64,000 bases of DNA, taken from NCBI GenBank assembly GCA_030148775.1, contig JASBST010000015.1, forward strand, positions 1 to 64,000. Direction: 5' to 3'. A model generated the notes under the pieces. It was not told the origin of the DNA. It was given only the letters and a program-made list of their open reading frames with translations, and searched no databases. Position numbers and translations under genes: made by a program. The DNA is from Thiogranum sp. Lineage in GTDB: Bacteria; Pseudomonadota; Gammaproteobacteria; DSM-19610. Every line of letters starts with the position of its first letter. Positions within the stretch are counted from its first letter, which is position 1. Of this stretch, positions 9,957-60,210 are shown piece by piece.

Positions 9957-10404
9957 GTCGTCGAACCGCTGCATTATAGGGGGCCGGTTAGGCATGTCAA
10001 TGCGACACAAGCGCGGGCGGCACGCACTTGCAGCCGAACGATCCTGTGCCATGCTTAGCACGGAGGCTGTTATGGTGCATCTCCCCTGCTCGGCGCTGGC
10101 ATCGGATCCGACGCGCTATTTTGTTGACGCAGACGGCGTCATCGTAAGCTTTTACGGCACAATCGCGGCGGTCGGTCTTTCCGCTGCTCCGGGCGGTTAC
10201 CACCGTTCACCAACGCATCCTCCACCGGCGAGCCAACCACCGCCCCATTTACCCCACCCGCGACGGCTGTTGCGCATGCCCGGCGTTTCCGCGCCCTGGT
10301 GGGGACCATCGCGCCACCCTGTGGTGCAAACCGCCGGCTCCAGCGCCGTCGCTTCCGACGCCCACACACCCGCTGGGGCGCCCCCACCCGAGGAGAAAAA
10401 TGCT
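9957..10404. other. Intergenic region upstream of the ferritin-like gene
   Basis: About 450 bases holding the tRNA-Val promoter and the leader of the ferritin-like gene. An open frame runs through it in phase with that gene, but its translation is Pro/His/Arg-rich without family resemblance, so I treat it as noncoding. Confidence 0.35.
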
Positions 10405-11055
10405 ATGAGAACCTTATCGCTCGCCCCCGTCAGCCAGTATCGCGAAGCCATGGGGCAACTATTGGTCCTGTATACCCAGGTCGATCGCCTGATCATGGAA
10501 ATCTGCGCCGAACGAATCGCGACCGCGCCGGACGAACCGGCCAGACTGGCGCTGGCCAAACAGGTCGGTGACGAAAGCCGGCATGTGTGCATTCAGCGCC
10601 AATGGATGGAACGCTTCGGCACCACCACCACGCCACTGATCTCGGCGTCGCAGGAAGCGATGATCCGCGAGCACTTCCGCGGGCTGCCCTGGCTGGAGTT
10701 TCTCGCCGATCTGTACCTTTGCGTGGAGGCACTCGGCAGTGAGGCGGTGGAGAACATCGTGCCGCTGGCCGACCCCGGCACCCGGGAATCGCTGCACGTT
10801 CCCCTCAGCGACGAACAGGACCATGTCGCTTTCGGCGTTTCCCGCCTGCGAGACGAGCTGGCGCGGTTGAGTCCGGCGCAGCGGCACGCCTTTGTCGCCA
10901 CGATCCCGCAACGTATCGATCGACTCACACAGGCTTTTCACGGCCTCGGCATCGACGTGGCCGGGCTGTTCGCGCGCGTGGGTGCCGACTACGATTCGCT
11001 CAGCGCCGCAGTGGCCAGGCGGCGCGACGAACTGCTGCAGCAGGTCGCCGCCTGA
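10405..11055 (+). CDS. Ferritin-like di-iron protein beside the encapsulin operon
   Basis: 216-residue, mostly helical protein with a ferritin-like ligand pattern. Glu32 lies in helix 1, E57-x-x-H60 (DESRH) in helix 2, Glu108/Glu113 in the third helix and E137-x-x-H140 (DEQDH) in the fourth. Two ExxH motifs plus two further glutamates are the classic di-iron set, so ferroxidase- or oxygenase-type chemistry is plausible. The ATG at 10405 follows GAGGAG. The gene converges on the encapsulin gene 27 bases away. It lacks an encapsulin-targeting tail, so any packaging would need another route. The exact subfamily is not recognised. Confidence 0.7.
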   Translation: MRTLSLAPVSQYREAMGQLLVLYTQVDRLIMEICAERIATAPDEPARLALAKQVGDESRHVCIQRQWMERFGTTTTPLISASQEAMIREHFRGLPWLEFLADLYLCVEALGSEAVENIVPLADPGTRESLHVPLSDEQDHVAFGVSRLRDELARLSPAQRHAFVATIPQRIDRLTQAFHGLGIDVAGLFARVGADYDSLSAAVARRRDELLQQVAA

Positions 11056-11082: not shown

Positions 11083-11889
11083 TCAGGTTTTGTAGACCAG
11101 CGGGACGGCCGCCTCGGGCGCCAGCACACGAAAGCCCATCGACTCCTGCAGATAGAGGCTGACCGTTTCCGGGCTGTGGTGCAGATAGCCGAGCGAGAAA
11201 TCCTGCCCCACCGTGAGCGCGAAGTCACCGCCGCGCAAACTGATGACGACCGCGCCGTCGATGGCCGGCGCCGGCACAATGGGCCCGTCCAGCAGGCGGT
11301 GGATCTGCTCGATGGCCGGATAGCCTCCGATCATGGTCTTGCTCAGACCGGTAAAGCAGCGCGGCCCGAGGGCGATGGCATAGGGGCCGGCCACGCTGTT
11401 ACTACGCAGACGGTGCACCGCTTCGGCCACAACGCCGAGGTAGGCGCTGTAGTCCTCGCTGATAATGCATTCGCTGCCGGCCGACGCGGTCATAATGCCC
11501 CGGATGCCGGCGGCGTCGAAACCGTGAAACACGGCACGGTCTTCGGCGACGCCCAGTGCGCGCGCCGCCGCGCGCACAGGATCCAGATCCGCATCCCGGG
11601 CGCCGCGTCCGATGGCCTCGAGTTCGCGCCGGTCCAGATCGAACGGAATCCGCAGTTCCATCAGCGGCTGGACCTGGCGCAGGCGCGCCAGCACACCATC
11701 CTGGGGACTGCTGTCCAACGGTTCGCTGCGTCCCAGGTTAAGGGCCGAGCTCTCCCAGCCCAGGGGGCCGTCGAAGTCGACCAACTTGCGCGCCGCCAAT
11801 ACGGCTTTCAAGCTGCGTTTCGCTTCCTGTTCAATCTCGGCCCAGGCGGCGGTCGTTATCGGGGCCAATTCGCGCTGCAGATCGTCCAT
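11083..11889 (-). CDS. Encapsulin nanocompartment shell protein
   Basis: 268 residues, the usual size for a family 1 (linocin M18-like, HK97-fold) encapsulin. Family features include WAEIEQEAKRSLKAVLAARK and VDFDGPLGWE near the N-terminus, the E-loop region (LMELRIPFDLDRRELEAI) and the C-terminal GQDFSLGYLHHSPETVSLYL. The shell self-assembles in the cytoplasm and encloses cargo bearing a short C-terminal targeting peptide. The ATG at 11889 is one base after the ferritin stop and has GGGGAG upstream, so the two genes are tightly coupled. Confidence 0.95.
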   Translation of the reverse strand: MDDLQRELAPITTAAWAEIEQEAKRSLKAVLAARKLVDFDGPLGWESSALNLGRSEPLDSSPQDGVLARLRQVQPLMELRIPFDLDRRELEAIGRGARDADLDPVRAAARALGVAEDRAVFHGFDAAGIRGIMTASAGSECIISEDYSAYLGVVAEAVHRLRSNSVAGPYAIALGPRCFTGLSKTMIGGYPAIEQIHRLLDGPIVPAPAIDGAVVISLRGGDFALTVGQDFSLGYLHHSPETVSLYLQESMGFRVLAPEAAVPLVYKT

Positions 11890-11890
11890 C

Positions 11891-12268
11891 TTAACTGTTC
11901 TCCCCACGCAGACTACCGATGCCTAGCGAACCCGCCGGGTATCCGTCCGGCGCGTCGCTGTCGGGATCCGTTTCCTCCAGGTCGATCACCGCTCCGTCAG
12001 CGAAGAGATATTTACGTAAATTCTCGTCCAGTTGCGGATCGCGCCGGCGCAGCCATTCGAGCACCATCGCCGCGTGCTCCTTTTCCTCGTCGCGGTTGTG
12101 CGCCAGAATCGCCGCCAACTCAGGATCACCGGCGGCGTCGACGCGCTGGTCGTACCAATCCACCGCTTCGAGTTCTTCCATGATCGACACAATCGCCCGG
12201 TGCCGATCCAGGGTCTCCGGCTTTAGCGCTTCAAGGCTCTCGTGCACACCGCCACTCTGGTCTGCCAT
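11891..12268 (-). CDS. Encapsulated ferritin (EncFtn) with encapsulin targeting tail
   Basis: 125 residues. EncFtn is a two-helix ferroxidase whose subunits pair to build a ferritin-like site; the encapsulin shell then stores the oxidised iron. Residues at the positions known in the Rhodospirillum rubrum protein are all present: Glu31, Glu32, Glu34, Trp38, Tyr39, Glu62 and His65. The C-terminal SLGIGSLRG is the canonical encapsulin-loading peptide. The ATG at 12268 follows AGGAG. It is the middle gene of a three-gene unit with a DsrC-like protein upstream and the shell downstream. Confidence 0.95.
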   Translation of the reverse strand: MADQSGGVHESLEALKPETLDRHRAIVSIMEELEAVDWYDQRVDAAGDPELAAILAHNRDEEKEHAAMVLEWLRRRDPQLDENLRKYLFADGAVIDLEETDPDSDAPDGYPAGSLGIGSLRGENS

Positions 12269-12320
12269 AGCGTAATCTCCTGCTCTCGTTGACTGAATCG
12301 ATGAATAACCGCCGCGTTGT

Positions 12321-12659
12321 TCAATCGGTCTGCTCCGGTAATTCGGCGCTCTCCAGGTAGGCCTTGGCCTCCTCGCCCGGATTCGGCAAACCGGCGATAC
12401 GCCATGCCCGACGGGGATCGGCCAGCAGATCGCTGACACAGTGCTTTTCCAATCCGGTCTCGGCGCAGATCTGGCGCATCACCGGCAGCGTTCTCTTGGC
12501 CATATAGTGCGCGCGCAACGCTTCGATCACTTGCATATGGTCCGCGCTCAAAGGTCCGATGCCTTCGCGCGCGGCGATCTCCGAGGCCAGGTCCGGACTC
12601 CAGGCGTCTGCCGAGCGCAAAAATCCGTCGGCGTCGAACTCGGCTTCTTCCACCGGCAT
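12321..12659 (-). CDS. DsrC/TusE-family protein lacking the catalytic cysteines
   Basis: 112 residues with the DsrC/TusE fold pattern: DADGFLRSADAWSPDLASEI, ADHMQVIEALRAHY, LPVMRQICAETGL and the C-terminal RAWRIAGLPNP. Classical DsrC has CysB just before RIAGLP and a penultimate CysA; TusE keeps CysA. Here CysB is Trp and the tail (GEEAKAYLE...) has no Cys, so sulfur-trafficking chemistry of that type is unlikely. Cys-less relatives have been proposed to be regulatory. It is first in the unit with EncFtn and encapsulin, behind a conserved ATCAAATGT box. GGGAGAG precedes the ATG. Confidence 0.85.
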   Translation of the reverse strand: MPVEEAEFDADGFLRSADAWSPDLASEIAAREGIGPLSADHMQVIEALRAHYMAKRTLPVMRQICAETGLEKHCVSDLLADPRRAWRIAGLPNPGEEAKAYLESAELPEQTD

Positions 12660-12725
12660 CGTGTCTCTCCCGATCAATGCATTTCCTACGATACAGTCTT
12701 GGCCAAGGCGACAGCACGCTCATTC

Positions 12726-12734
12726 ACATTTGAT
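12726..12734 (-). promoter_or_regulatory. Conserved ATCAAATGT box A (DsrC-like/encapsulin operon)
   Basis: Minus-strand TTATCAAATGTGAATG, ending 66 bases before the DsrC-like start. The 14 bases from ATCAAA are identical to those before hsp20, and three more units share the nine-base core. The binding factor is unknown. Confidence 0.55.
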
Positions 12735-12824
12735 AACGGCCGACGCCCCGCTGCGAGCCGGCATCGCGCCGACGGCCGGAGCGTGGGCTCCGCAGTGCGA
12801 CGATCCCGGACCGAACACAAATGG

Positions 12825-13247
12825 TCAGCGCAACAGTTTATTTTTCAGGGGTGGGAAGAATCTCAAGATAACGAAATTGACCCCCGCCAGCGCCACCGCC
12901 ACCTCATAACGCTGGAAGGCCACGGCCGCGCCGACAGCGCCAGTGTTCCAGATACTCGCCGCGGTCGCCGTGCCATGCACATTACCGCCATCCTTGAGGA
13001 TAGCGCCGCCGCCGATGAACCCGATCCCGGTCATGAGCCCGTAGAGCACCCGCGAGAGCGCCTCAGGACTGTCCTGCATCAGCGACTGCCCGAGCAGGAT
13101 GTAACCGCACGACGCGACCGACACCATCGGGAACGTCCGCAACCCGATACCGCGCGTTTCGCGTTCCCGGTCCCATCCGATAGGCAGCGCCAGCAAAAAC
13201 GCCAGCGCCAGCTCAGTGAGATTGGCCACGTCAACCAGGCCTTGCAA
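12825..13247 (-). CDS. MgtC/SapB-family membrane protein
   Basis: About 140 residues with several transmembrane segments and the family motifs GWDRERETRGIGLRTF and GIGFIGGGAILKDGGNVHGT. MgtC-type proteins aid survival at low magnesium or in acid and interact with membrane ATPases or transporters; the substrate here is unknown. It is the short form without the C-terminal cytoplasmic domain. The start is uncertain. A TTG at 13247 works, but AGGAGG lies five bases from an in-frame ATC at 13256, which would add three residues. Confidence 0.85.
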   Translation of the reverse strand: MQGLVDVANLTELALAFLLALPIGWDRERETRGIGLRTFPMVSVASCGYILLGQSLMQDSPEALSRVLYGLMTGIGFIGGGAILKDGGNVHGTATAASIWNTGAVGAAVAFQRYEVAVALAGVNFVILRFFPPLKNKLLR

Positions 13248-13340
13248 AGTCTCGATAAGCGCCTCCTGGATCAGGGTCAGGGAAACGACTTTTGTTCCCT
13301 GGCAACGGGCAAGGTTTGAAAATCCTTTCAGGCGGACAGC

Positions 13341-13481
13341 TTACATTTTGTCCTTGACGTGCTCCGAGGCGTCCTGGATTTCTTCGCCACCGCTTTCCAC
13401 GTCCTTGCCCAAGCCTTCCACGGTGTTACAACCCGCCAACAGCAGCGGAATCAGTAGTGTTGCCAATACATATGTCTTCAT
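13341..13481 (-). CDS. Entericidin-like small lipoprotein
   Basis: 46 residues. A short signal sequence ends in the lipobox LLLAGC, and the mature part NTVEGLGKDVESGGEEIQ is typical of entericidin A/B-type lipoproteins, which are often under stress or stationary-phase control. A second, longer relative lies at 21472-21651. Confidence 0.85.
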   Translation of the reverse strand: MKTYVLATLLIPLLLAGCNTVEGLGKDVESGGEEIQDASEHVKDKM

Positions 13482-14105
13482 GGAGTTTCACCCTCGATAG
13501 CGGGAATCGGCTCAGGCCGTGCGGAGCGCTTTCCCGGAAAGCCGTGTCGTAAGTTACCGGACCGACATTAAGGGTCCGACCGGGGCATGACTGTCAGCCG
13601 ATCCGGAACAGATTGTAGGGCATCGCCTTCATGCCGGTTTTCATCGCCACCTCCCGATATCGAGGCATCGCTGTTGTAACCCGCTCAACGAAAAAGCATT
13701 CTTTCCAGGTACCGGTATGCGATCAGAACCCGGCCGGCGATTGCAGAGGAATTGCGGGGAATTCAGGCACTTCCCATTTCCCTACAGCAGCAATGTCAGT
13801 TATCCGACAGAAGCGGATTTCGCGATACGGTTTACTACGCTCAACCGCAGAGGCGATACATCCGGTGGAACTTTGGAGGTTGGGTCTATATCACAGGAAT
13901 CTGCTCTCAAAAATTCAAGCGTTGTGATCTTGGTGCCTGCAGCACTGGAAATGTCCGCACGATGATTGCCGCTCCCTTAGGCCACTATATTTGGCCACAT
14001 AGCCAGCCTGGAATCTCCAAACCTCCCTCCTTCTCAGCTGGCTTTTTTATTTTCCGTTTGCTTGATAGGCTGTCGGTTTAACATAGGCAATCGCAGGAGA
14101 CTCTG
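13482..14105. other. 624-base region without a recognisable gene
   Basis: Overlapping short frames (for example 13752-14081) have no family resemblance and no good ribosome binding site. The region is more AT-rich than its neighbours and ends in a terminator-like hairpin. An untranslated RNA or a leader for the kinase gene are possibilities I cannot distinguish. Confidence 0.35.
14001..14048 (+). terminator. Terminator-like hairpin upstream of the first histidine kinase
   Basis: AGCCAGC at 14001-14007 pairs with GCTGGCT at 14037-14043, followed by a T-run and TATTTT. The loop is long (29 bases). It ends about 55 bases before the kinase ATG, so it would terminate a transcript arising in the gene-free region to its left. 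Confidence 0.45.
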
Positions 14106-15506
14106 ATGGAGCAAGTTGTTCCTACCCGGGACATCGCTGCGGCACCTGCGGTCCCGGAGTGGTGGCCACACGTAATACTGGGCGTCGCCAGCGCACTGTT
14201 GCTGACTTTGCTGGTAGTCACTTTGTATTACGCCACCACGGCCCGCCGATTGCTGACCGACCTGCAGCAGTACGCCTGGCAGGTGGACAAGGTCGACGCA
14301 CTTCTGATCCAGCTGTTGAACGCGGAAACCGGCGCCAGGGGCTTTCTGGTCACCGCCGACAATGTCTACCTGGATCGTTACCGGGAGGGGATTTCCAGAC
14401 TGGGTGCGCTGCTGAGCGATATCGACAGCCATCCGGAAAAACCACCGCTGAACGTCGACGAGTACGGCAAACTGAAACGATTGATCGACGCCGAAATCAA
14501 GGCGCTGTCCTCGGCGATCGACGCCAGACAGGCCGGAGCCCGTCTGCCCGACAAGCTGATCGAGCACGGCAACCGGATGATGGACGCGATACGCGACAGT
14601 CTCAATCGCATCCGCTCGCAGCTTTCCCAGGACAATGCCACCTACTATGTGACTTCGCTGGGTTTTCTCGGCAAGTCGCGCTGGGTAGTGGTGTCGCTCT
14701 TCACTGCAGCCTTTCTGCTCCTGTTGAGCCTGTTTCTCCTGCTGCAAAAACAGATCGGCCTGCGTCATCGCATCGCCTCGATGATGAGCGATGAGAATGA
14801 GCGGCTGGAAAAACTGGTCAAACAGCGGACCACCGAACTCAACGATCTGGCCAGCTATCTCACCCGCCTGAGCGAAACGGAGAAACGCCGTATCGCCCAG
14901 GAGTTACACGACGAGATGGGGGCGCTGCTGACCGCCGCCCGAATGGACACGACCTGGATTATGCGGGACCTCGACCCCCGGCTGAGCGAGAAATACGCCC
15001 GCCGCCTGAGCCGGCTGTCCGAATCGCTGGACGCCGCCATCAGCCTGAAGCGCAAAATCACTTCCGACCTCAAACCGCCTTTGTTGCAGGAATTGGGCTT
15101 GATCGAATCGGTCAGTGTCATGGTGCAGGACCTCGCCAACGACGGCTCCCATCAGGTTCGAATGGAGCTGCCGAAGAGTCTTCCGCCGATAGACAGTGAA
15201 CGTACGCTCGCCGTCTTCCGGATCATCCAGGAATCCCTGACCAACATCCGCAAATATGCACAGGCACGACATATTGAGGTAGGCGTCAGCCTCGAGGACC
15301 AGGACATCCATATCCGTATCGCCGACGACGGCCAAGGCTTCGACAGCGACAGGCAGCGCAGCGCCGGCAACGGGATACCGGGCATGCGCCACCGCGCCCA
15401 GATGTTCGGCGGCGGTCTGACGGTCACTTCCTCGCCCGGCCAGGGGACCTTGATAGAAGCCTATATTCCGATCCAGGGACGGGCGGAGCGTCGGCAGGCT
15501 CAGTGA
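14106..15506 (+). CDS. CHASE3-type NarL-family sensor histidine kinase (first copy)
   Basis: 466 residues. A transmembrane segment at about 22-43 is followed by a periplasmic CHASE3-like domain with NAETGARGFLVT, a second segment at about 190-212, and a coiled coil. The HisKA_3 dimerisation domain has phosphoacceptor His268 in RRIAQELHDEMGALL, and the HATPase domain has NIRKYAQA and DDGQGFD. It should autophosphorylate and pass phosphate to a NarL/FixJ-type regulator. Its 3' end overlaps by seven bases the convergent receiver gene, beyond which lies a LuxR-type regulator. The 19016-20431 kinase is a paralogue with the same order of domains. Ligand unknown. Confidence 0.92.
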   Translation: MEQVVPTRDIAAAPAVPEWWPHVILGVASALLLTLLVVTLYYATTARRLLTDLQQYAWQVDKVDALLIQLLNAETGARGFLVTADNVYLDRYREGISRLGALLSDIDSHPEKPPLNVDEYGKLKRLIDAEIKALSSAIDARQAGARLPDKLIEHGNRMMDAIRDSLNRIRSQLSQDNATYYVTSLGFLGKSRWVVVSLFTAAFLLLLSLFLLLQKQIGLRHRIASMMSDENERLEKLVKQRTTELNDLASYLTRLSETEKRRIAQELHDEMGALLTAARMDTTWIMRDLDPRLSEKYARRLSRLSESLDAAISLKRKITSDLKPPLLQELGLIESVSVMVQDLANDGSHQVRMELPKSLPPIDSERTLAVFRIIQESLTNIRKYAQARHIEVGVSLEDQDIHIRIADDGQGFDSDRQRSAGNGIPGMRHRAQMFGGGLTVTSSPGQGTLIEAYIPIQGRAERRQAQ

Positions 15507-15928
15507 TTGATGATGTCGCGCTCGTTCTGGATAAAGTCAATCAAGTCGTCGAGCTGGTAGGATTTGTCGAAAAATCCGTCGACACCCAGATCCTCGCATC
15601 GCCGACGCAATACGCTGGAACCATGGTTGGTAAAAATTACGGTTTTGGGATTGCCATAACGCTCGCGATCATTGCTCAGCGCGGTCAATACTCCGATCCC
15701 ACTGCCGGCCTTCAGTTCGAGATCGATAATAACCAGATGAGGTTGCTTCGTCTCCATGCTGTGCAGGCCGCCCGACTGGTCTTCCGCTTCACCAACCACG
15801 GAAACATCGTCCACGCTCGACAGGACATCCACCAGCATTTCTCTCAACAGCATGGAATCTTCGATAATGACGACGTCGAACACAGGCATCGTTCGGCTGA
15901 TCTCGGCGTTGCTATACCCGCTTTGCAT
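15500..15928 (-). CDS. Stand-alone response-regulator receiver domain
   Basis: 142 residues containing only a receiver domain: acidic pair in VVIIEDSMLL, phosphoacceptor Asp in HLVIIDLELKAG and the conserved Lys in GFFDKSY. There is no output domain, so it probably works by protein contact or as a phosphate sink, as CheY or Spo0F do. It lies 17 bases behind the LuxR-type regulator gene and converges on the kinase gene. The ATG at 15928 is preferred; a GTG two codons upstream is possible. Confidence 0.85.
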   Translation of the reverse strand: MQSGYSNAEISRTMPVFDVVIIEDSMLLREMLVDVLSSVDDVSVVGEAEDQSGGLHSMETKQPHLVIIDLELKAGSGIGVLTALSNDRERYGNPKTVIFTNHGSSVLRRRCEDLGVDGFFDKSYQLDDLIDFIQNERDIINH

Positions 15929-15945
15929 GATCACCCACCACGCGT

Positions 15946-16599
15946 CTACGCCAAACCGTGGCGGACGGCATAAGCCGCCAATTCAGCGTTACTATTCAAC
16001 CCCATTTTCTCCATGAGGCGAGAGCGGTAGGTGCTTATGGTTTTGGTACTCAGGTGCAGCGTATCGGCGATGGTCGAAACGTTCGCACCTTGCGCCAGAC
16101 GCAGAAACACCTGAAGCTCACGTTCGGACAACTGCTGATGGGGTTGGGCATCCTGTTCGCCCGCAACCTCCCTGGCCAGCAGCTCCGCGGTCTTGGGGGA
16201 AATATAGCGCTGACCGCGCGCCACACTGCGAATGGCCGAAATCAAGTCCTCTTTTTCACAGTCCTTGCACAGGTAGCCGTCGGCGCCGTTTCGAATCATC
16301 GGCAGGGCATAACGATCTTCGGGATAACCACTGAGTATCAAAACCCCGATATTGTCGTAGCGCTGGCGTATGGCACGCAGGATATCGACACCGCTCTCTT
16401 CCGGCAGTGAAATATCCAGCAGCACCAGATCGCACTGATCGTTCCGCAACGCTTCCATCAACGCGGTACCCGAGGACGTATCGAGGGTCACCTCGAATCC
16501 GGGTTCATCCGCCAACAACTCGCGGAAACCGCGACGAACAATTTCGTGATCGTCGACGATGGCGATTCGTACCGGGCTGTAAATACTAGATGGTTTCAT
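15946..16599 (-). CDS. NarL/FixJ-family response regulator (first copy)
   Basis: 217 residues: receiver domain with phosphoacceptor Asp62 (LVLLDISLPE) and C-terminal LuxR-type HTH (LSERELQVFLRLAQGANVST ... STKTISTYRSRL). The switch lysine sits in C111-K-D-C114, a CxxC around a conserved functional residue. The same motif occurs in the paralogue at 20438-21079. It presumably pairs with the kinase at 14106. Targets unknown. Confidence 0.93.
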   Translation of the reverse strand: MKPSSIYSPVRIAIVDDHEIVRRGFRELLADEPGFEVTLDTSSGTALMEALRNDQCDLVLLDISLPEESGVDILRAIRQRYDNIGVLILSGYPEDRYALPMIRNGADGYLCKDCEKEDLISAIRSVARGQRYISPKTAELLAREVAGEQDAQPHQQLSERELQVFLRLAQGANVSTIADTLHLSTKTISTYRSRLMEKMGLNSNAELAAYAVRHGLA

Positions 16600-16955
16600 G
16601 GACGAGAATTTTCGCAGTTATAGTCAGCGGTGACGGCCGGGCGCAACGCTTTCGCGCTTGCCTGTACCCCCCCAATCCCAAAGACGGATCCGGTCGCAAT
16701 CCGTCTCTGACGCTAGCTATTCTAGATCTGTTTACCTCGCTTACGCCAGTCTTCCCGGTAGGATGTCTCTTATTTAGATGTCGTCTCTGTCCTACATTCC
16801 CGTGCGCCGCGGAGATTCATGCCCAATCCGTCGCGTCGAAAACTAACTGCTTGTTTCTCATGGCTGAACGAGCAACAGACTCGGGCCCTATGTGGCACGG
16901 GAATGCCCGGCCAGGCGCCGACCGCCCGGCCTGACTGCTCCCGTGCCCCGGGCGG
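16600..16955. other. Intergenic region upstream of the response regulator
   Basis: About 355 bases between two minus-strand genes. It should hold the promoter of the response regulator. I see no gene, clear terminator or repeat. Confidence 0.35.
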
Positions 16956-17480
16956 TCAAAAATTGAAGCCCACCCCGAGGCCATAAAAGATCGCACCATC
17001 GTCGTAGCTGTCATCGATGTCATTGGATTCGTCGAACAGGAACTGGTACTCCATGGCGACGTTGATGAAGGTCTTGTCCTTGACATAGTACTTGAGTCCC
17101 ACCTCCGGGCCGGCGCTGAAGCTTTCGTTGGTGTCTTCGCCATAAAGATAACCGAGGCTCGCGCCCACGTAGGGCCGCCAGGCGCCGCCGTCGAAGTGCC
17201 AGTCGTAGAACAGGCGTGTGGCGCCATTCCAGCGGGAGCTGGAATTGTTCGTGTCCGAGACACTCACGGACTGCCGGATTCCCCACTCCGACTGATCCGT
17301 GGTAAACCAGCCATAGCTGCCGGAGGCGGAAAAAATATTGGCATCGAAATCCTTGTCGCTGGAGCCCGTGCCCTGGATGGTGATCTCGCGGTCGCCGGCC
17401 GCCGGTGCGGCCTGCGCCAGATTCGCCGCGCCCATACAGGCCAGCAACCCACAGGCAAGATAAGTGCGTTTACGCATCAT
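16956..17480 (-). CDS. Predicted outer-membrane beta-barrel protein
   Basis: 174 residues. A signal peptide ends ANLAQA-AP, then come alternating amphipathic strands rich in aromatic residues and Gly (ASGSYGWFTTD, RLFYDWHF, WRPYVGASLGYLYGE, GPEVGLKYYV). The C-terminus GLGVGFNF ends in Phe, as is usual for BAM-assembled barrels. It resembles small OmpA/OmpW-like eight-stranded barrels of unknown function and stands among stress-related small genes. Confidence 0.8.
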   Translation of the reverse strand: MMRKRTYLACGLLACMGAANLAQAAPAAGDREITIQGTGSSDKDFDANIFSASGSYGWFTTDQSEWGIRQSVSVSDTNNSSSRWNGATRLFYDWHFDGGAWRPYVGASLGYLYGEDTNESFSAGPEVGLKYYVKDKTFINVAMEYQFLFDESNDIDDSYDDGAIFYGLGVGFNF

Positions 17481-17538
17481 AGTCGATTCCTCTAGTCGTC
17501 ATTATTCAGTTTGTGTCCGGCGAAACGTCGGTTGCAAT

Positions 17539-17703
17539 TCAACGTCGTCCCACCAGGTGCAGAAAAAAACTCGCAATGGCCATCACCATGAACAACACGA
17601 ACAATATCCTGGCTATTTCTTCCGCACCGGCCGCCAGGCTTCCGAAGCCCGCGATGGCGGCGATCAACGCCTCCATGAGGTAAACCAGTGAATAGGACAA
17701 CAT
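17539..17703 (-). CDS. DUF1328 (UPF0391)-like small membrane protein
   Basis: 54 residues with two hydrophobic segments (YLMEALIAAIAGFGSLA and ILFVLFMVMAIASFFLHLVG), the DUF1328 layout. Function unknown; such proteins are frequent in stress and stationary-phase gene groups. A closer match to the family consensus lies at 34109-34273. Confidence 0.75.
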   Translation of the reverse strand: MLSYSLVYLMEALIAAIAGFGSLAAGAEEIARILFVLFMVMAIASFFLHLVGRR

Positions 17704-17770
17704 CCGCGTCTTCGTTCCTGGGTAGAGCGCCAGAAGCGCGGCCGTCTATCCGGCCGCGCGAGCGGTCACG

Positions 17771-17974
17771 TCACGAGTTCAGGTTACGCTGCCATTCGTC
17801 CACCTGACGTTCGGCTTCATCGCGCTCCACGCCATAACGCTCCTGGATTTTCCCGGCCAGCTCTGTCGTCCGGCCGTCGATGACATCGAGATCGTCATCG
17901 GTGAGTTTCCCCCACTGTGCCTTGACCTTGCCGGACATCTGCTTCCAGTTTCCTTCGATAATGTCTTTATTCAT
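17771..17974 (-). CDS. CsbD-family stress protein
   Basis: 67 residues, hydrophilic, with the CsbD signature MNKDIIEGNWKQMSGKVKAQ, WGKLTDDDLDVIDG and a C-terminal YGVERDEAERQVDEW. CsbD proteins are induced by general stress; their biochemical role is unknown. Confidence 0.93.
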   Translation of the reverse strand: MNKDIIEGNWKQMSGKVKAQWGKLTDDDLDVIDGRTTELAGKIQERYGVERDEAERQVDEWQRNLNS

Positions 17975-18018
17975 GATGTTCTCCGTGTATAAACCTGACA
18001 GGCATTTAAATCGGTTGA

Positions 18019-18237
18019 TCAGGCGTTGCCGCCTGATGAACGGGCGTGGGAAAGACCTTCTTTTTCGGCCTCTGACAGCTCGCGCTCCTCGTCGGCGTCT
18101 CGCGGCGCCGCTTTCTCCGCGGCGGACTTCACCTTTCCGCGCTTGACGAACTCGCGTACACCCTCGTCATAATCTTCCGCGGCGGTGTAGTTGCCTTCGC
18201 CCTGTATCTCGTCGTTGGATTTGGCGCTGTCTGACAT
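18019..18237 (-). CDS. Small acidic conserved hypothetical protein
   Basis: 72 residues from the ATG at 18237, which follows AGGAGAT. Highly charged (NYTAAEDYDEGVREFVKRGK ... EERELSEAEKEG), without membrane segments and probably disordered. Its place beside the CsbD gene suggests a stress role, but that is inference. Confidence 0.7.
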   Translation of the reverse strand: MSDSAKSNDEIQGEGNYTAAEDYDEGVREFVKRGKVKSAAEKAAPRDADEERELSEAEKEGLSHARSSGGNA

Positions 18238-18515
18238 GATTTCATCTCCTGATAACTGCATCGGTCCCTGTGCCGATGTTGGGGATGAAGCCTATCCAGC
18301 CGCCGGGTTGGCCACAGTCGGTGCAGCCCCCGGAAAGAAGTAGGTTGTGACCTAAGTCTGGTCGGCCCCATCCTACGGTTGCACAGATTTACTCTTTGAA
18401 ATTCCTTGTAATATTTAGATTCACGCCGGGTGGCGCAACCGCGCTGCTGTGGGCCCGGGCCGGTGTTCCGGGGCCCGGTAGGGCGCAAACCGCTGCTCGC
18501 CCCGAAGGGGGTTTG
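18238..18515. other. GC-rich intergenic stretch with an internal near-repeat
   Basis: Contains GGCGCAACCGCGCTGCT (about 18433) and GGCGCAAACCGCTGCT (about 18482) some 50 bases apart, plus long runs of G and C that should fold stably. No riboswitch family matched by eye. Confidence 0.3.
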
Positions 18516-18854
18516 TCAATGCGAACGCGGCCGGGGGAAAGACTCGGGATTCACGCCGGAACGGCCGCAACCAGTCCCGTCGCCGCGGACCCCGGCCGAC
18601 ATCAGACAAAAGGAAATACATAAACATTCGATGCCCGATTTGCGATCCCGGTGGACCCCGAGAAAACGGTAGCGCTGGCGTCGCGCGGCGGAATTCTGAC
18701 CCGGTTCCAGCAACTCATTCAGCACCGGAATATAGACACTTGGATTTGAAAGGGCTTTGTCCACCCACAAGTGAACGATATCGCCGGGCGCCGTGTGTAA
18801 CTCCAGCACGCCATCCGCGCCGCGGACGTTGGCGGGTCGGCTTGTCCTGTTCAT
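18516..18854 (-). CDS. Hypothetical protein (low support)
   Basis: 112-codon frame whose ATG is preceded by AGGGGG at ideal spacing. The first 75 residues look protein-like (VLELHTAPGDIVHLWVDKAL), while the last 35 are Arg/Gly/Ser-rich and may be untranslated if the true end differs. It is divergent from the second kinase gene. No family recognised. Confidence 0.4.
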   Translation of the reverse strand: MNRTSRPANVRGADGVLELHTAPGDIVHLWVDKALSNPSVYIPVLNELLEPGQNSAARRQRYRFLGVHRDRKSGIECLCISFCLMSAGVRGDGTGCGRSGVNPESFPRPRSH

Positions 18855-19015
18855 AATACCCCCTGTGAAATCGCTGACCCCGGCGCAAGGCGCGAGGACA
18901 TTGAAAAACGCCGAATAATCATTTTACTCGGATGTAACTTATGTCACTGTAAGAATCCTCCGAAGTGCGCGTAGGCACTTCCGGCGGGTTTGTTTTTCGG
19001 CGAGATGATTGACTG

Positions 19016-20431
19016 ATGACGCGACATTCCCCTCCCCCTCCCAGCGAAGACTGCGAACCGGCCGCGGAAGCGGGGTCCAAAAACCATGTCATTCTGGCGC
19101 TGGCGTCCCTGGTCATCCTCGCCATATTCATCGCCTGGTTCTACCAGTCCAATGCCACACGGGACGCGCTCGCGCGACTGGAAGAGCATGCCGCAAGGAC
19201 CGAACATCTCGACCGTCTGTTGATCAGTCTGCTCAAATCGGAGACCGGCGTGCGCGGCTTTCTGGTTTCAGGCGACAACGAATATCTGCAACCTTATAGC
19301 GAGGCGATCGATCAACTGGACAGAAACCTGGCACTCGTCATGCGTGGCGTCGGCCACGTCGGCAAGGCGGAGGAAACTGAACAGTTACGGCGCGCGATCC
19401 GCCAATACGAAATACTGGCGCGGGATCTGATCCAGGACAAGAAAAAGGGGGGCAGCGCCAACCTGCTGGATCTTTACCGCGGCAACAATTCTCTGGAATA
19501 CCTGAAAAGCACGATCGCGCAGCTGAAACAGCGACTGACCGAGGAAAGCCAGGCTTTCTATCAGCGTACCGCCCGCAGCCAATATGTGACGCGCTGGGCC
19601 GTATTCGGCCTTTGCCTGGCCGCGCTGTTTCTGGTGCTGTGGCTATTCTGGTCACTGCAGCGGCAGGCGCGTTTGCGCCGGGAGCTGGCGCTAGCCCTGC
19701 ACCGGCGCGCTTCGGATCTGGAATCCGAGGTGAGAAATCGCACTGCGGAACTCACGTCGCTCGCCGCGCAACTGACGCGTGTCAGCGAGGAGGAAAAGAT
19801 GAACCTGGCGCGCGAACTGCACGACGATCTGGGGGCCTCGCTGACCGCCGCGAAGATGGACGCGGCCTGGCTGCGGGCGCGCTGTGAGTTATTGCCGGAA
19901 GACCAGGCGTGTACGAAGACGCAACGTCTTATCCGCTCGCTGGATCACGCGATCGGGATGAAACGCCGGCTTACCAGCAATCTCATGCCGCCGCTGCTCA
20001 GGGACCTCGGCCTGTTCGACGCCCTCGAAGGCCTGGCCGACGATCTGCGCGCCGACGGCAACATCCAGGTCGCCCTCAGACTGCCGCGCCAGCAACCCGA
20101 ACTGGAGGCTTCCGTGGCACTGGCCCTGTTCCGGATAACGCAGGAGGCGATTACCAATGTGCGCAAATATGCCCGCGCTGATCGACTAAGCATCTCGATA
20201 TCCACTGAAGACAATCGGCTAAAATTGAGTATTGAAGACGACGGGACCGGATTCGATCCCGGGCACACAGAAGAGAAGAGTTTCGGCATCATCAGCATGC
20301 GCCATCGCTGCCAATTGATCGGCGGGGAGTTCGAACTCCACAGCGCGCCGGGCCGGGGGACCCGCATCGTCGTCGCCCTGGGTCTGCCGACCGAGCCCCG
20401 GGACGGCCATCCGTCCGAGGCCCCGGGCTGA
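19016..20431 (+). CDS. CHASE3-type NarL-family sensor histidine kinase (second copy)
   Basis: 471 residues with the same architecture as the kinase at 14106: transmembrane segment at about 25-45, CHASE3-like domain (KSETGVRGFLVSGDNEYLQP), second segment near 200, HisKA_3 domain with His269 in NLARELHDDLGASLTAAKMD, and an HATPase domain with TNVRKYARA and DDGTGFD. Strong similarity across the kinase core suggests a duplication, with sensor domains more diverged. It converges on its likely partner regulator, leaving six bases between the stops. Confidence 0.92.
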   Translation: MTRHSPPPPSEDCEPAAEAGSKNHVILALASLVILAIFIAWFYQSNATRDALARLEEHAARTEHLDRLLISLLKSETGVRGFLVSGDNEYLQPYSEAIDQLDRNLALVMRGVGHVGKAEETEQLRRAIRQYEILARDLIQDKKKGGSANLLDLYRGNNSLEYLKSTIAQLKQRLTEESQAFYQRTARSQYVTRWAVFGLCLAALFLVLWLFWSLQRQARLRRELALALHRRASDLESEVRNRTAELTSLAAQLTRVSEEEKMNLARELHDDLGASLTAAKMDAAWLRARCELLPEDQACTKTQRLIRSLDHAIGMKRRLTSNLMPPLLRDLGLFDALEGLADDLRADGNIQVALRLPRQQPELEASVALALFRITQEAITNVRKYARADRLSISISTEDNRLKLSIEDDGTGFDPGHTEEKSFGIISMRHRCQLIGGEFELHSAPGRGTRIVVALGLPTEPRDGHPSEAPG

Positions 20432-20437
20432 AGCGCC

Positions 20438-21079
20438 TCAGGTGTCGATCAGTCCGTTGCGTACCGCATAGGTGGCCAGCTCCGCGTTACTGGAGACGCC
20501 GATTTTGTCGAGAAGACGGCTGCGATAGGTACTGATGGTCTTGACACTGAGATTCAGATTGCGCGCGATCTGGGTGACACTGTCACCGTGAGCCAGGCGG
20601 GTAAATACCTGCAGTTCCCGCTCGGAGAGCAGGTGGTGTGGCTGCTTGCCGGCCCCGCCCGCCACCTCTTCGGCCAGTATGTGGGCCGCTTTGGTGGAAA
20701 GATAACGCCGGCCCCGCGCTACGGTACGAATCGCCTTCACCAAATTCTTGCCGTCACAGTCCTTGCAAAGATAGCCGTGCGCGCCATGGCGGATCAACGC
20801 GGAGGCGTAACGGTCCTCTGGATAACTGCTCAGCATCAGCACGCGCATGTCGGGGTGACACTGACGCACCTGTTGCAGAATATCGATGCCGCTCTTACCG
20901 GGCAGCGATATGTCGAGCAGCAACACGTCGCAATCCGCATCTTTCAGATTCTCCAGCGCCTCTTCGCCGCTGGCGGCTTCAAATACGACTTGAACAGCCC
21001 CTTCCGCGTGACTCTCGAGCATTTCGCGAAAACCGGCCCGTACGATACTGTGATCGTCGACTATTCCTACGCGCGTCAT
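20438..21079 (-). CDS. NarL/FixJ-family response regulator (second copy)
   Basis: 213 residues from MTRVGIVDDHSIV: receiver domain with Asp56 (VLLLDISLP) and LuxR-type HTH (LSERELQVFTRLAHGDSVTQ ... SVKTISTYRSRLLDKIG). Very similar to the regulator at 15946, including the C105-K-D-C108 motif around the switch lysine. An upstream ATG at 21154, overlapping the preceding gene, would add 25 residues. I prefer 21079 because it gives the paralogue's length and has GGGAG upstream. Likely partner of the facing kinase. Confidence 0.9.
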   Translation of the reverse strand: MTRVGIVDDHSIVRAGFREMLESHAEGAVQVVFEAASGEEALENLKDADCDVLLLDISLPGKSGIDILQQVRQCHPDMRVLMLSSYPEDRYASALIRHGAHGYLCKDCDGKNLVKAIRTVARGRRYLSTKAAHILAEEVAGGAGKQPHHLLSERELQVFTRLAHGDSVTQIARNLNLSVKTISTYRSRLLDKIGVSSNAELATYAVRNGLIDT

Positions 21080-21146
21080 CCCTGTGGTTTCTCCCGCCGG
21101 ATACGAACGGCGCACCTTGTGTCCCGCCGTGTCGGGTGTAGGTAGG

Positions 21147-21365
21147 CTACTCATATCGATTACCCGTTCCACGCACCAGACCCGCCAGGGCCGGCACAAT
21201 TGATAAAACAAATAACAATTTGGCATGCCCCGCCGTTTGCGAGGCGGCGCCGCCAGCACCCAATGCCAGTGCCAGTGCGGCGACCAAAAACAATGCCGTA
21301 AGATAAGCGGGCGTATAACGCGCTTCCCGCGGCCTGGTCATTATATCGTGTGTTAAAGGTTTCAT
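21147..21365 (-). CDS. Small two-segment membrane protein upstream of the response regulator
   Basis: 72 residues from the ATG at 21365, preceded by GGAG. Two hydrophobic stretches (AYLTALFLVAALALALGAGG and LLFVLSIVPALAGLVRG) suggest a helical hairpin in the inner membrane. Its stop overlaps the alternative regulator start, so the genes are probably cotranscribed. No family recognised. Confidence 0.6.
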   Translation of the reverse strand: MKPLTHDIMTRPREARYTPAYLTALFLVAALALALGAGGAASQTAGHAKLLFVLSIVPALAGLVRGTGNRYE

Positions 21366-21471
21366 TCGATTCTCCAGACGCTCGCAATCCCCTTGCTCAA
21401 AGACCGCGACGGTCAACTATCGGGATCATCCGACCCACGCCACCGAAACCGGCGACGTGGTCGAGCCTTGC

Positions 21472-21651
21472 TCACTGATTGACTTCATCCTGAATCTTGT
21501 CGCCCGCGTTCTCGATTTTCTCTCCGCTCTTGTCAATGGCGTTGTCCACGTTCTCGCCGGCCTCCTCGGCCGGCCCGTCGTTGGTGTCGCAACCGGCGAG
21601 CATCAGCATACTGGCGAGCCCTGCCGCCACTAACAGATTATTGAAAGTCAT
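21472..21651 (-). CDS. Small entericidin-like lipoprotein
   Basis: 59 residues. The signal sequence ends in SMLMLAGC (lipobox), followed by a strongly acidic mature part with repeated DN/EN-A-G/D-K units (EEAGENVDNAIDKSGEKIEN). Likely lipidated and envelope-located; function unknown. Confidence 0.8.
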   Translation of the reverse strand: MTFNNLLVAAGLASMLMLAGCDTNDGPAEEAGENVDNAIDKSGEKIENAGDKIQDEVNQ

Positions 21652-21935
21652 GATTTTTCTCTCCCTAGGATGAAATAACTTACGGAAGAGCAATTTACCC
21701 TCGCGGGTCCGCCATGACTGTCGGAGGGACCGGATTAGCATGCAGGACGATTCCTACATCCGCAACCTGTCCGAAAAACGTTAGACACATCCTACACAAA
21801 GGTCAGCAGCGGCTGATCCTTTGCGCCCTGGCTAGCCTCCTACACTCTTACTGTGCCCATAGGCCGCCCCTGCAGCACCGAGCGTCCGGCCAAATAGTTT
21901 AACAAAACTTTTTTACCTATACGGAGAGTACAGTT

Positions 21936-22685
21936 ATGAATGTGAGCTCAATGACAGACAGGCAGCGTCAAACGTTACGCTGCCGCAGCGCGAGCCACCT
22001 GCACCTGCTGGGCAGCCGTACACAGCACGCGCGCAGCGCTGAGGCCAACGAAATCCTTATCAACGAGGGATCGATGCCGTCACGGGTTCTGCTGATCGAC
22101 AACGGCTGGGCGATCCGTTACAAGACGCTGGCCGACGGCAGACGGCAGATCCTGGACTTTCTCCTGCCCGGAGACATGGTGGGAATGTTTGCGATTCTTT
22201 TCGATCAGACGGAATACGGCGTGCAGGCACTGACTCCGTTGACGGTCCGCAGCATCGACGCCAAACACGTCATCGCCGAGCTCAACCGGTCGCAACAGTT
22301 CGCCATAACCCTGAACTGGCTGGCCGGCAGCGTAGAGCAGCGCATGGACGAACATCTGATGCGGGTGGGCCGACGCAGCGCCGAGGAACGAATGGCGCAT
22401 CTGTTTGTAGAGCTGCACCGTCGGTTGAAACGCAGCGGCCTGCAGGATACCGCCGCACGCCGCCTGCCGATTACCCAGAAGACCATTGCCGATCATCTGG
22501 GCATGAGCCATGTGCACGCCAATCGCACCTTCCGTTCGCTGGTGCGTCAGGGAACCGTATCGCTCAGCGACGGCGAGATCCTGCTGCTCGACCCGTGCGA
22601 ACTGGTCCGGCTGGCCGGCTTCGAGGAAAGTTACCTTTGCCATACACCGGCGTGCGTCAGCGAACAGAGCTACTCCTGCGCATGA
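21936..22685 (+). CDS. Crp/Fnr-family transcriptional regulator
   Basis: 249 residues: N-terminal cyclic-nucleotide-binding-like barrel (VLLIDNGWAIRYKTLADGRR ... FLLPGDMVGMFAILFD) and C-terminal Crp-type HTH (LPITQKTIADHLGMSHVHAN). The four N-terminal cysteines of Fnr are absent, so an oxygen-labile cluster of that type is unlikely. The cAMP-contact residues of Crp are not evident. The C-terminal tail carries three Cys (SYLCHTPACVSEQSYSC). It is followed 47 bases later by a DsrC-like gene and may control it. Confidence 0.9.
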   Translation: MNVSSMTDRQRQTLRCRSASHLHLLGSRTQHARSAEANEILINEGSMPSRVLLIDNGWAIRYKTLADGRRQILDFLLPGDMVGMFAILFDQTEYGVQALTPLTVRSIDAKHVIAELNRSQQFAITLNWLAGSVEQRMDEHLMRVGRRSAEERMAHLFVELHRRLKRSGLQDTAARRLPITQKTIADHLGMSHVHANRTFRSLVRQGTVSLSDGEILLLDPCELVRLAGFEESYLCHTPACVSEQSYSCA

Positions 22686-22732
22686 ACGCCCAGGCCCCTT
22701 GCATCGAATTTGTCATAAGAGGAAAAATACCC

Positions 22733-23143
22733 ATGAGTAGCGAAAACGAACAAATCCGTCGCGGTTTCGAAGAGGCTTACCGCGAAGCGGGTGACGTCAG
22801 CGTCGAGACCGACATCGACGCGCAGCAGCGGTCGCGACGACAGCGCGAATTGGACACCTGGAATCTCGACAAGGCGCGCGCAACCGCGGCCGAGGAAGGC
22901 ATCGAACTCAACAACGCCCACCTTCAGGTCATTCACTGCCTGCGTAATCATTACCTGGAACACGGCTTGGCGGAACACGGACGCGAATTGGGCGACATGC
23001 TTGACGAACGCTTCGCCAACGCCGGCGGTCGCAAGTATTTGCGGCGACTGTTCCCGGAGGGGCCTGTCGCGCAGGGACTGAAACTAGCCGGACTGCCCGT
23101 TCCGGGTGACACCGAAGATGCGGGATTCGGCACAGCGCGCTGA
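22733..23143 (+). CDS. Second DsrC-family-like protein without catalytic cysteines
   Basis: 136 residues. After a charged N-terminal extension of about 35 residues the DsrC pattern appears: LDTWNLDKARATAAEEGIEL, NAHLQVIHCLRNHYLEHG, a middle helix and KLAGLPVPGD near the end. Neither the Cys before the (R/K)(I/L)AGLP motif nor the C-terminal Cys is present, as in the protein at 12321. It sits directly downstream of the Crp/Fnr gene. A regulatory role is inference. Confidence 0.78.
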   Translation: MSSENEQIRRGFEEAYREAGDVSVETDIDAQQRSRRQRELDTWNLDKARATAAEEGIELNNAHLQVIHCLRNHYLEHGLAEHGRELGDMLDERFANAGGRKYLRRLFPEGPVAQGLKLAGLPVPGDTEDAGFGTAR

Positions 23144-23160
23144 ATACGCTAAAGATTGTT

Positions 23161-23169
23161 ATCAAATGT
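23161..23169 (+). promoter_or_regulatory. Conserved ATCAAATGT box B (upstream of hsp20)
   Basis: TTATCAAATGTGAATG, identical over 16 bases to box A before the encapsulin operon. It ends 99 bases before the likely hsp20 start and begins 18 bases after the DsrC-like stop. Confidence 0.55.
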
Positions 23170-23268
23170 GAATGCTTCCGGCGGCCGCTGATGGCACCCT
23201 GGTTTGCGCTTGGCAAACCCGTGGAATCGCCGGAGAATGCAGATGCTTGAGTTGGATATCCAGCCTGG

Positions 23269-23721
23269 ATGCACGCCGTGAGCTGCGCAGGCTGGAACCC
23301 ATTGCAGGAGATGGAAGAACTGCTGGACCGTTACCACAGAGCGACCGGACGAAGCGTCGTCAACTGCGCGGACGATTACCTGAACTCAGACTGGCTTCCG
23401 CACACCGACCTTGAGGAAACCCCCAGCACCGTTGTGGTGCGCGCGGAGCTGCCCGGCGTACGCAAGCGGGACATCGTGGTCAACATCAGTCGCGGCATGC
23501 TGGAAATCAGCGGTGAGAAACACGCCGAACTGAAGCAGGCCCAGGGTAATCGCAAGCACATCGGTGAGTGCCAGTTCGGTTGTTTTCGACGTACGCTGTC
23601 GCTGCCGCAGGAATTGGAGGTCTCGGCGGCGAATGCCACCTACAGCGACGGCGTTTTGATCATACAAATACCAAAATTATCCGGGAGCGCCGACTATGAA
23701 CACCGTATCCAGATTGACTGA
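23269..23721 (+). CDS. Hsp20/alpha-crystallin-family small heat-shock protein
   Basis: About 150 residues. A short N-terminal arm (WNPLQEMEELLDRY) precedes an alpha-crystallin domain: PSTVVVRAELPGVRKRDIVV, ISRGMLEISGEKHAE, GECQFGCFRRTLSLPQEL and DGVLIIQIPKL. Small heat-shock proteins hold unfolding proteins in a refoldable state. The start is uncertain because no strong ribosome binding site precedes 23269. A conserved ATCAAATGT box lies upstream, fitting stress control. Confidence 0.88.
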   Translation: MHAVSCAGWNPLQEMEELLDRYHRATGRSVVNCADDYLNSDWLPHTDLEETPSTVVVRAELPGVRKRDIVVNISRGMLEISGEKHAELKQAQGNRKHIGECQFGCFRRTLSLPQELEVSAANATYSDGVLIIQIPKLSGSADYEHRIQID

Positions 23722-23947
23722 GCCTGTCGCGGCCACCGCGGCCACCGATCCGCCCATCAAACCTCCGCAGCCGCAAAATCCCCCGATCGAACCGCCTGGC
23801 CCCGACAAACCGCCGGTCATACCCCCCGAGCCCGGAAAGCCGCCGGTGGAACCGCCGGGGCCGGCTCAGCCTCCGGTCGAGCCGCCGGGTCCGGGCGAGC
23901 CGCAGCCGGGTGATCCGCAGGATCCCGACCATCCCCCAGCCCTCTGA
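23696..23947 (+). CDS. Small proline-rich repeat protein overlapping hsp20
   Basis: 83 residues. The ATG lies inside the end of hsp20 in another frame, with GGGAG seven bases upstream. From about residue 19 the chain is nearly pure Pro-rich repeat, with units like PPVEPPGP and PPVIPPEPGK, probably a polyproline II rod. There is no signal peptide or membrane segment. The overlap and spacing suggest coexpression with hsp20. Function unknown; a chance frame cannot be fully excluded. Confidence 0.55.
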   Translation: MNTVSRLTEPVAATAATDPPIKPPQPQNPPIEPPGPDKPPVIPPEPGKPPVEPPGPAQPPVEPPGPGEPQPGDPQDPDHPPAL

Positions 23948-24019
23948 AACGGCCTCAGGCGCGCCATCGATGGCCGGCCCCGCCCAGGCGAACACCCGCG
24001 GCCGCCTCGTCGACGCTCA

Positions 24020-25381: not shown

Positions 25382-25382
25382 T

Positions 25383-25391
25383 ATCAAATGT
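25383..25391 (+). promoter_or_regulatory. Conserved ATCAAATGT box C (upstream of phospholipase D-VTT gene)
   Basis: The nine-base core begins two bases after the DUF2254 stop and ends 62 bases before the phospholipase start. Bases after the core (TAACC) differ from the other copies. TTGATATCAA overlaps it as a short palindrome. Confidence 0.5.
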
Positions 25392-25453
25392 TAACCTGGA
25401 CGCAAGTGGATACCGATAAGCTATTGTTATCTTTCGGATCAAGGTTCTAGAGC

Positions 25454-27619: not shown

Positions 27620-27621
27620 GC

Positions 27622-59420: not shown

Positions 59421-59542
59421 CCCACTTATCTTACTCTGCCCGAAAAAACGACGCCAAATCCACTCAAATCCGATCCCTTGCAACGACTAAAACCTACCAC
59501 CCAAAACCATCTTATTTTAAAGGTAATAGTCAGACTCTGAAG

Positions 59543-59559: not shown

Positions 59560-59569
59560 AAACTTTTAG

Positions 59570-60178: not shown

Positions 60179-60210
60179 AAACTATTAGCCCGCCTCGAAT
60201 GAGATTCTAA

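What the first reader, a model, noticed from the sequence alone, without database searches (positions are those of the whole stretch)
11083..12734. Iron-storage encapsulin operon headed by a DsrC-like protein
The order DsrC-like, EncFtn, encapsulin with one-base and 52-base gaps indicates one unit. EncFtn has the full ligand set and loading tail. A cysteine-less DsrC relative as first gene is not part of the usual encapsulated-ferritin layout I know, and may link iron storage to sulfur or redox state.
Basis: partly seen in the sequence, partly recalled or inferred. Interest (0 to 1): 0.7.

Follow-up and report, generated by a model that had tools for sequence, protein, structure and literature searches.

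The report
DsrC-like gene heading iron-storage encapsulin operon
A standard bacterial iron-storage nanocompartment (ferritin-like enzyme plus protein shell) sits behind a gene for a sulfur-carrier relative that has lost its sulfur-carrying arm, under a control sequence shared with a heat-shock gene; similar pairings recur in related bacteria with other sulfur-carrier relatives and other shells, and I found no published mention of the link.

Summary
On the minus strand lie a DsrC-family protein (12659-12321), EncFtn (12268-11891) and a family-1 encapsulin (11889-11083), with 52-base and 1-base gaps. EncFtn has the full ferroxidase ligands and loading tail. 'Cysteine-less' is wrong: the DsrC-like protein has Cys65 (nearly invariant in its subfamily) and Cys74, but it lacks both cysteines of the sulfur-carrying C-terminal arm.

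The order is conserved in only one of the sampled relatives (G005). In a third species (G003) the same dsrC-like gene, at the same chromosomal site, heads a cytochrome-oxidase operon instead. Its promoter region carries a 16-bp element found three times in the genome and at the same sites in three species: before this gene, hsp20 and a metallo-beta-lactamase-fold gene. EncFtn-Enc therefore looks like a passenger of a stress-type dsrC transcription unit.

The pairing recurs. A second DsrC subfamily heads a second, deeply diverged EncFtn-encapsulin operon in G002 and G008. A third DsrC lies tail-to-tail with an unencapsulated EncFtn in this genome. Outside the family, 4 close pairs occur in 3 genomes against about 0.06 expected. 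None of 80 EncFtn loci in a general survey has a DsrC neighbour.

Best reading: a known cassette under regulated dsrC-like units; DsrC function unproven.

The parts
12321..12659 (-). A-type DsrC-like protein, 112 aa (ATG at 12659; an in-frame TTG at 12677 is possible). Lacks both C-terminal-arm cysteines; ends IAGLPNPGEEAKAYLESAELPEQTD; Cys65 and Cys74 present.
   Evidence: PF04358 E 5e-17; PDB DsrC homologues E 5e-12; subfamily alignment A1; dN/dS 0.11 against G005
11891..12268 (-). EncFtn, encapsulated ferritin, 125 aa, with ferroxidase ligands E31 E32 E34 Y39 E62 H65 and targeting tail GSLGIGSLRG
   Evidence: PF22277 E 3e-40; TIGR04535 142 bits against cut-off 125; ligand numbering as in PMC5012862
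11083..11889 (-). Family-1 encapsulin shell protein (ATG at 11889, one base after the encFtn stop)
   Evidence: PF04454 E 4e-85; NF041155 303 bits against cut-off 100; encapsulin tree
12719..12737 (-). Conserved upstream element GTTATCAAATGTGAATGAG (core TTATCAAATGTGAATG), 59 bases before the dsrC-like ATG
   Evidence: Identical in G005, 1 mismatch in G003, where EncFtn is absent; 3 copies in the own genome, 0 for the reversed control pattern; 0.01 expected in the window
23158..23176 (+). Second copy of the element (2 mismatches over 19 bases, 0 over the 16-base core), between a B-type dsrC and hsp20
22733..23143 (+). B-type DsrC-like paralogue (ends DTEDAGFGTAR; no arm cysteines). The same subfamily heads an EncFtn-encapsulin operon in G002 and G008.
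   Evidence: PF04358 E 9e-19; alignment A2
23269..23721 (+). Hsp20 small heat-shock protein behind the second element copy
   Evidence: PF00011 E 6e-18; same order with the element in G005 and G003

Best explanation
A conventional two-gene iron-storage cassette (EncFtn plus family-1 encapsulin: EncFtn oxidises Fe2+ and the shell sequesters the mineral) was placed directly behind dsrC-A, a gene with its own regulated promoter, and is now the passenger of that transcription unit. The promoter carries a dedicated element (TTATCAAATGTGAATG) shared with hsp20 and a metallo-beta-lactamase-fold gene, so iron storage is induced together with a small stress regulon. DsrC-A is not a sulfur carrier, because both arm cysteines are gone; most likely it is a small regulatory or adaptor DsrC, perhaps sensing redox or sulfur state through Cys65. 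Shown: gene order, conservation, element, loss of arm cysteines, recurrence. Inferred: co-transcription, induction by stress, the direction of assembly, and the regulatory role of DsrC-A.
For: 52-base and 1-base gaps and no terminator-like site on the minus strand. The upstream region is only 62% identical between window and G005 except for a 19-base perfectly conserved block. The 16-base core occurs 3 times in the genome, with 0 for the reversed control, and at orthologous sites in G005 and G003: before dsrC-A, before hsp20 (one mismatch in G003), before the MBL-fold gene. In G003 the element and dsrC-A stand at the same site, beside the same histidine kinase, without EncFtn-Enc and in front of a cytochrome-oxidase operon, so dsrC-A and its promoter can exist without the cassette. 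80 EncFtn loci elsewhere have no DsrC gene, so the two-gene cassette is the common unit. The neighbourhood is rich in stress-type genes: MgtC, CsbD, Hsp20, Crp/Fnr regulator, two CHASE3-kinase/response-regulator sets. The arm cysteines (A. vinosum Cys100 and the sulfur-binding Cys111, PMC3397948) are absent.
Against: No transcript data; the element's binding protein is unknown, and no sigma-70-like promoter was found in the region. The element is restricted to three species of one genus. Recurrence with a second DsrC subfamily and a second encapsulin clade, and pairs in other families, suggest more than promoter capture. The cassette could equally have been lost in G003. Nothing tested shows that DsrC-A binds DNA or protein.
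Confidence: 0.5

Rival explanations
1. A- and B-type DsrC-like proteins are functional accessory factors of EncFtn systems, for instance a cytosolic partner that binds EncFtn or the shell, or controls iron uptake or release according to redox or sulfur state; selection keeps them next to EncFtn.
For: Two DsrC subfamilies each head an operon with a different encapsulin clade (A with clade 1 in G000 and G005; B with clade 2 in G002 and G008). A third DsrC is 24 bp tail-to-tail with a short EncFtn in G000 and G005. Outside the family, A/B types lie within 3 kb of EncFtn in G376, G327 and twice in G264: 4 pairs against 0.06 expected. Canonical DsrC/TusE never appears there. A-type genomes carry EncFtn more often (17 of 38 against 83 of 331, Fisher P 0.02).
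Against: Most A- and B-type genes are not near EncFtn and most EncFtn loci have no DsrC. No targeting peptide on any of these DsrC tails. Arrangements differ (upstream, divergent, convergent). G003 pairs the same dsrC-A with cytochrome oxidase.
Confidence: 0.22
2. Neighbourhood hitch-hiking: EncFtn cassettes and A/B-type dsrC genes are both stress-island genes, so they end up side by side without functional coupling.
For: Window and G264 surroundings are full of stress-type genes (CsbD, MgtC, Hsp20, a DnaJ-like and a DUF883-like protein; the last two named by eye). A-type genes sit beside very varied partners.
Against: Operon-like spacing of dsrC with encFtn in two unrelated systems; clear excess over random placement, although that test assumes uniform placement and thresholds were set after seeing the data.
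Confidence: 0.2
3. DsrC-A is a transcriptional regulator of its own operon (a DNA-binding DsrC), tuning EncFtn-Enc expression.
For: First gene of the unit with a conserved element in its own upstream region; arm cysteines lost. From memory, cysteine-less DsrC relatives have been proposed as regulators (RspA) and A. vinosum DsrC as DNA-binding; I could not open those papers.
Against: The element also stands before hsp20 and an MBL-fold gene, so its binder need not be DsrC-A, and other A-type orthologues lack the element. No helix-turn-helix domain was reported by Pfam, and the structure model was too weak to judge (mean pLDDT 65).
Confidence: 0.2
4. DsrC-A is an ordinary DsrC/TusE sulfur carrier delivering sulfur to the iron store.
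For: It belongs to the DsrC Pfam family.
Against: Both arm cysteines are absent, NCBIfam TIGR03342 is missed, and the penultimate cysteine is the sulfur-binding residue (PMC3397948).
Confidence: 0.03

Closest known systems
EncFtn-encapsulin iron-storage systems (Rhodospirillum rubrum, Haliangium ochraceum; PMC5012862, PMC8791618)
   Same: EncFtn ligands, targeting tail, and encapsulin gene immediately downstream
   Different: A DsrC-family gene heads the operon; none of 80 EncFtn loci from a general genome collection had one
DsrC/TusE/DsvC sulfur-relay proteins (TIGR03342; A. vinosum DsrC, PMC3397948)
   Same: DsrC homology over residues 10-100
   Different: Flexible arm with CysA and CysB replaced by IAGLP(N/D)PGEEAKAY; below the family cut-off
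RspA-type DsrC relatives without arm cysteines (recalled from the literature, not read here)
   Same: No arm cysteines; occur as extra paralogues in organisms with many DsrC copies
   Different: A-type keeps a nearly invariant Cys65; the link to EncFtn is not described in the papers I could search
IMEF encapsulin operons with a 2Fe-2S ferredoxin partner (PMC8346489)
   Same: Precedent for an iron-storage encapsulin operon with an accessory redox gene
   Different: That ferredoxin has a targeting-peptide-like motif and co-purifies with the shell; the DsrC-like proteins have no such motif

Membership tests
EncFtn (encapsulated ferritin) | Family model score | tested here: met
   TIGR04535 142.2 bits against cut-off 125; PF22277 E 3e-40
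EncFtn (encapsulated ferritin) | Ferroxidase and entry-site ligands E31 E32 E34 Y39 E62 H65 | tested here: met
   Read from the sequence at window 12268-11891 with the same numbering as in PMC5012862
EncFtn (encapsulated ferritin) | C-terminal encapsulin targeting peptide | tested here: met
   GSLGIGSLRG near the C-terminus; motif described
Family-1 encapsulin | Shell protein model score | tested here: met
   NF041155 303.5 bits against cut-off 100
Family-1 encapsulin | Self-assembly into an icosahedral shell with loaded cargo | not testable with these tools
   Needs expression and electron microscopy
DsrC/TusE sulfur-relay protein | DsrC-like domain | tested here: met
   PF04358 62.7 bits against cut-off 24.9
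DsrC/TusE sulfur-relay protein | Penultimate cysteine that binds sulfur (A. vinosum Cys111) | tested here: not met
   C-terminus GLPNPGEEAKAYLESAELPEQTD; role of Cys111
DsrC/TusE sulfur-relay protein | NCBIfam TIGR03342 cut-off | tested here: not met
   50.3 bits against 53.5
RspA-type regulatory DsrC | Loss of both arm cysteines | tested here: met
RspA-type regulatory DsrC | DNA binding or regulatory activity | not testable with these tools
   Needs gel shift or expression tests
Encapsulin cargo protein (for the DsrC-like protein) | Targeting peptide at a terminus | tested here: not met
   No (L)xIGSLxG-like stretch in A-, B- or C-type DsrC tails

The most novel reading that the evidence does not exclude
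Carrier-dead DsrC paralogues (A and B types) are a recurring, functionally dedicated partner of EncFtn iron-storage systems, recruited separately to two diverged encapsulin clades and to an unencapsulated EncFtn, coupling iron storage or release to a redox or sulfur signal.
Probability: 0.2. Interest if true: 0.75.

Novelty: new variant of a known kind. Interest (0 to 1): 0.48.

Why it matters
How encapsulated iron stores are regulated, loaded and emptied is largely open; in the encapsulin survey passages read, only IMEF systems have a proposed redox partner (PMC8346489). A DsrC-like gene tied recurrently to EncFtn gives a testable candidate. The shared 16-bp element gives a handle on which signal turns the nanocompartment on. 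It may also give a role to DsrC relatives that cannot carry sulfur, several of which are present as extra paralogues in this genome.

Tried and rejected
Cargo idea: no targeting peptide on any DsrC tail. Canonical sulfur carrier: arm cysteines absent. Viral origin or carriage of A-type DsrC: no relative in viral contigs; plasmid hits are only TusE at about 33% identity. Literature: no paper with both encapsulin and DsrC; the papers on regulatory DsrC relatives were not found in the library. Conserved partner of A-type genes elsewhere: contexts vary; a small unnamed protein directly behind it recurs in three genomes only. A second EncFtn match in G001 is a broken short copy, not a decayed encapsulin operon. 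The gene-calling script failed on the very GC-rich G327 locus, so its intervening 1.2 kb is not annotated.

Full report
Observation. The three genes exist on the minus strand as described: dsrC-like 12659-12321, encFtn 12268-11891, encapsulin 11889-11083, with gaps of 52 and 1 bases. Pfam and NCBIfam name them DsrC (PF04358, 5e-17), EncFtn (PF22277, 3e-40; TIGR04535 passed) and family-1 encapsulin (PF04454, 4e-85; NF041155 passed). EncFtn carries E31, E32, E34, Y39, E62 and H65 at the positions of the R. rubrum protein (PMC5012862) and the tail GSLGIGSLRG. The DsrC-like protein is not cysteine-less: it has Cys65 and Cys74, and Cys65 is kept in 16 of 17 relatives. It lacks both cysteines of the C-terminal arm; in A. 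vinosum the penultimate one binds sulfur (PMC3397948). It therefore fails membership as a sulfur-relay protein while being a clear DsrC homologue.

Genome. The window's assembly (3.1 Mb, 86.7% complete) holds ten DsrC-family genes and two EncFtn genes. The second EncFtn has no encapsulin beside it and lies tail-to-tail, 24 bp apart, with a third kind of DsrC (C77). The window itself holds another DsrC-like gene at 22733-23143 (B type).

Relatives. The A-type DsrC, EncFtn, encapsulin order is kept in one same-genus species, G005 (L139), with dN/dS of 0.11, 0.16 and 0.07. In G003 the orthologous dsrC-A (69% identity) stands beside the same histidine kinase but is followed by cytochrome-oxidase subunits and no EncFtn-Enc. 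In G002, G018 and G019 the orthologue is not near EncFtn. In G002 and G008 a B-type DsrC heads a different EncFtn-encapsulin operon (L142 3571-5258; L145 11302-9736), and in G008 an A-type gene also lies convergent, about 0.4 kb beyond the encapsulin gene.

Two encapsulin clades. A tree of 69 encapsulins places window and G005 with G327 and G350 (97/93 support). It places G002 and G008 in a separate, deeply split clade with G264, G091 and others. So A-type DsrC goes with clade 1 and B-type with clade 2. G327 (clade 1) has an A-type gene about 1.2 kb convergent to its EncFtn-Enc; G264 (clade 2) has B-type genes about 1.2 kb downstream of two EncFtn-Enc copies; G376 has an A-type gene about 0.1 kb divergent from a short EncFtn. 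Because G327 and G264 share encapsulin clades with the window's family, these may be old associations rather than wholly independent ones.

Numbers. None of 80 EncFtn loci from a general genome collection has a DsrC neighbour. In a 369-genome class sample, 38 genomes carry a strong A-type gene, and 17 of them have EncFtn, against 83 of the other 331 (Fisher P 0.02, no correction for kinship). Outside the own family, A/B-type genes within 3 kb of EncFtn number 4 pairs in 3 genomes, against about 0.06 expected under uniform placement (Poisson P about 4e-5 for three or more). Thresholds were chosen after seeing the data, so this is indicative. In the wider phylum sample of 399 genomes only one genome besides the own one has an A-type match.

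The control element. Aligning window and G005, the region before dsrC-A is 62% identical overall but contains a 19-base identical block, GTTATCAAATGTGAATGAG. The whole genome holds only three copies with up to 3 mismatches and none of the reversed control. Among 20 genomes searched, only G000, G005 and G003 have the 16-base core (up to 1 mismatch), each at the same three places: before dsrC-A, between B-type dsrC and hsp20, and before a metallo-beta-lactamase-fold gene, about 75-120 bases before the start codons. A second, weaker match (CCAANACT) follows 18 bases after the core in the dsrC-A copies and, in full or in part, in two of the MBL copies (by eye). Its binder is unknown. Because G003 has the element and dsrC-A but no EncFtn-Enc, the promoter most simply belongs to dsrC-A, and the cassette is a passenger; loss in G003 is the alternative.

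Mechanism. Shown: order, spacing, conservation, element, loss of arm cysteines, recurrence. Inferred: one transcript, induction with a small stress regulon, and a regulatory or adaptor role of DsrC-A. EncFtn-Enc itself should work as in known systems: Fe2+ oxidation by decameric EncFtn and mineral storage in the shell.

Known or new. The cassette is ordinary. The DsrC-headed layout and its recurrence are not mentioned in the library searched, and the large encapsulin survey passages read name ferredoxins with IMEF systems but no DsrC (PMC8346489; its supplements could not be read). I class it as a new variant of a known kind, of moderate interest, with a less likely but attractive reading that carrier-dead DsrC proteins are dedicated EncFtn partners.

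Noticed in passing
window 9994-11055 (+): Gene convergent to the encapsulin with weak hits to MiaE-like, AurF and DUF455 diiron families; conserved beside the encapsulin in G005. Possibly another diiron protein of the same locus.
   Followed up: partly
L164 9007-9720 (own genome C77): Second, unencapsulated EncFtn tail-to-tail with a DsrC paralogue ending MRKPRKLMLDV; the same in G005 (L165).
   Followed up: partly
window 12721-12736 (-), 23159-23174 (+), and own genome C109:6734-6749: Three-member element TTATCAAATGTGAATG at orthologous sites in three species, before dsrC-A, hsp20 and an MBL-fold gene; binder unknown.
   Followed up: partly
window 12825-28980: Stress-type island: MgtC, two CHASE3 histidine kinases with LuxR-type response regulators, CsbD, Crp/Fnr regulator, B-type DsrC, Hsp20, DUF2254, phospholipase-D/VTT fusion, NhaA antiporter; the part from the Crp-type regulator to NhaA is syntenic in G003.
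   Followed up: partly
own genome, ten places: Ten DsrC-family genes in one 3.1 Mb genome, several without arm cysteines.
   Followed up: partly
L140 5936-10218 (G003): dsrC-A at the head of a cytochrome-oxidase operon, 36 bp before the subunit-II gene, with the same element upstream.
   Followed up: partly
window 58001-64000: G+C drops from about 0.60 to about 0.50-0.52 with stronger GC skew; possible foreign segment.
   Followed up: no
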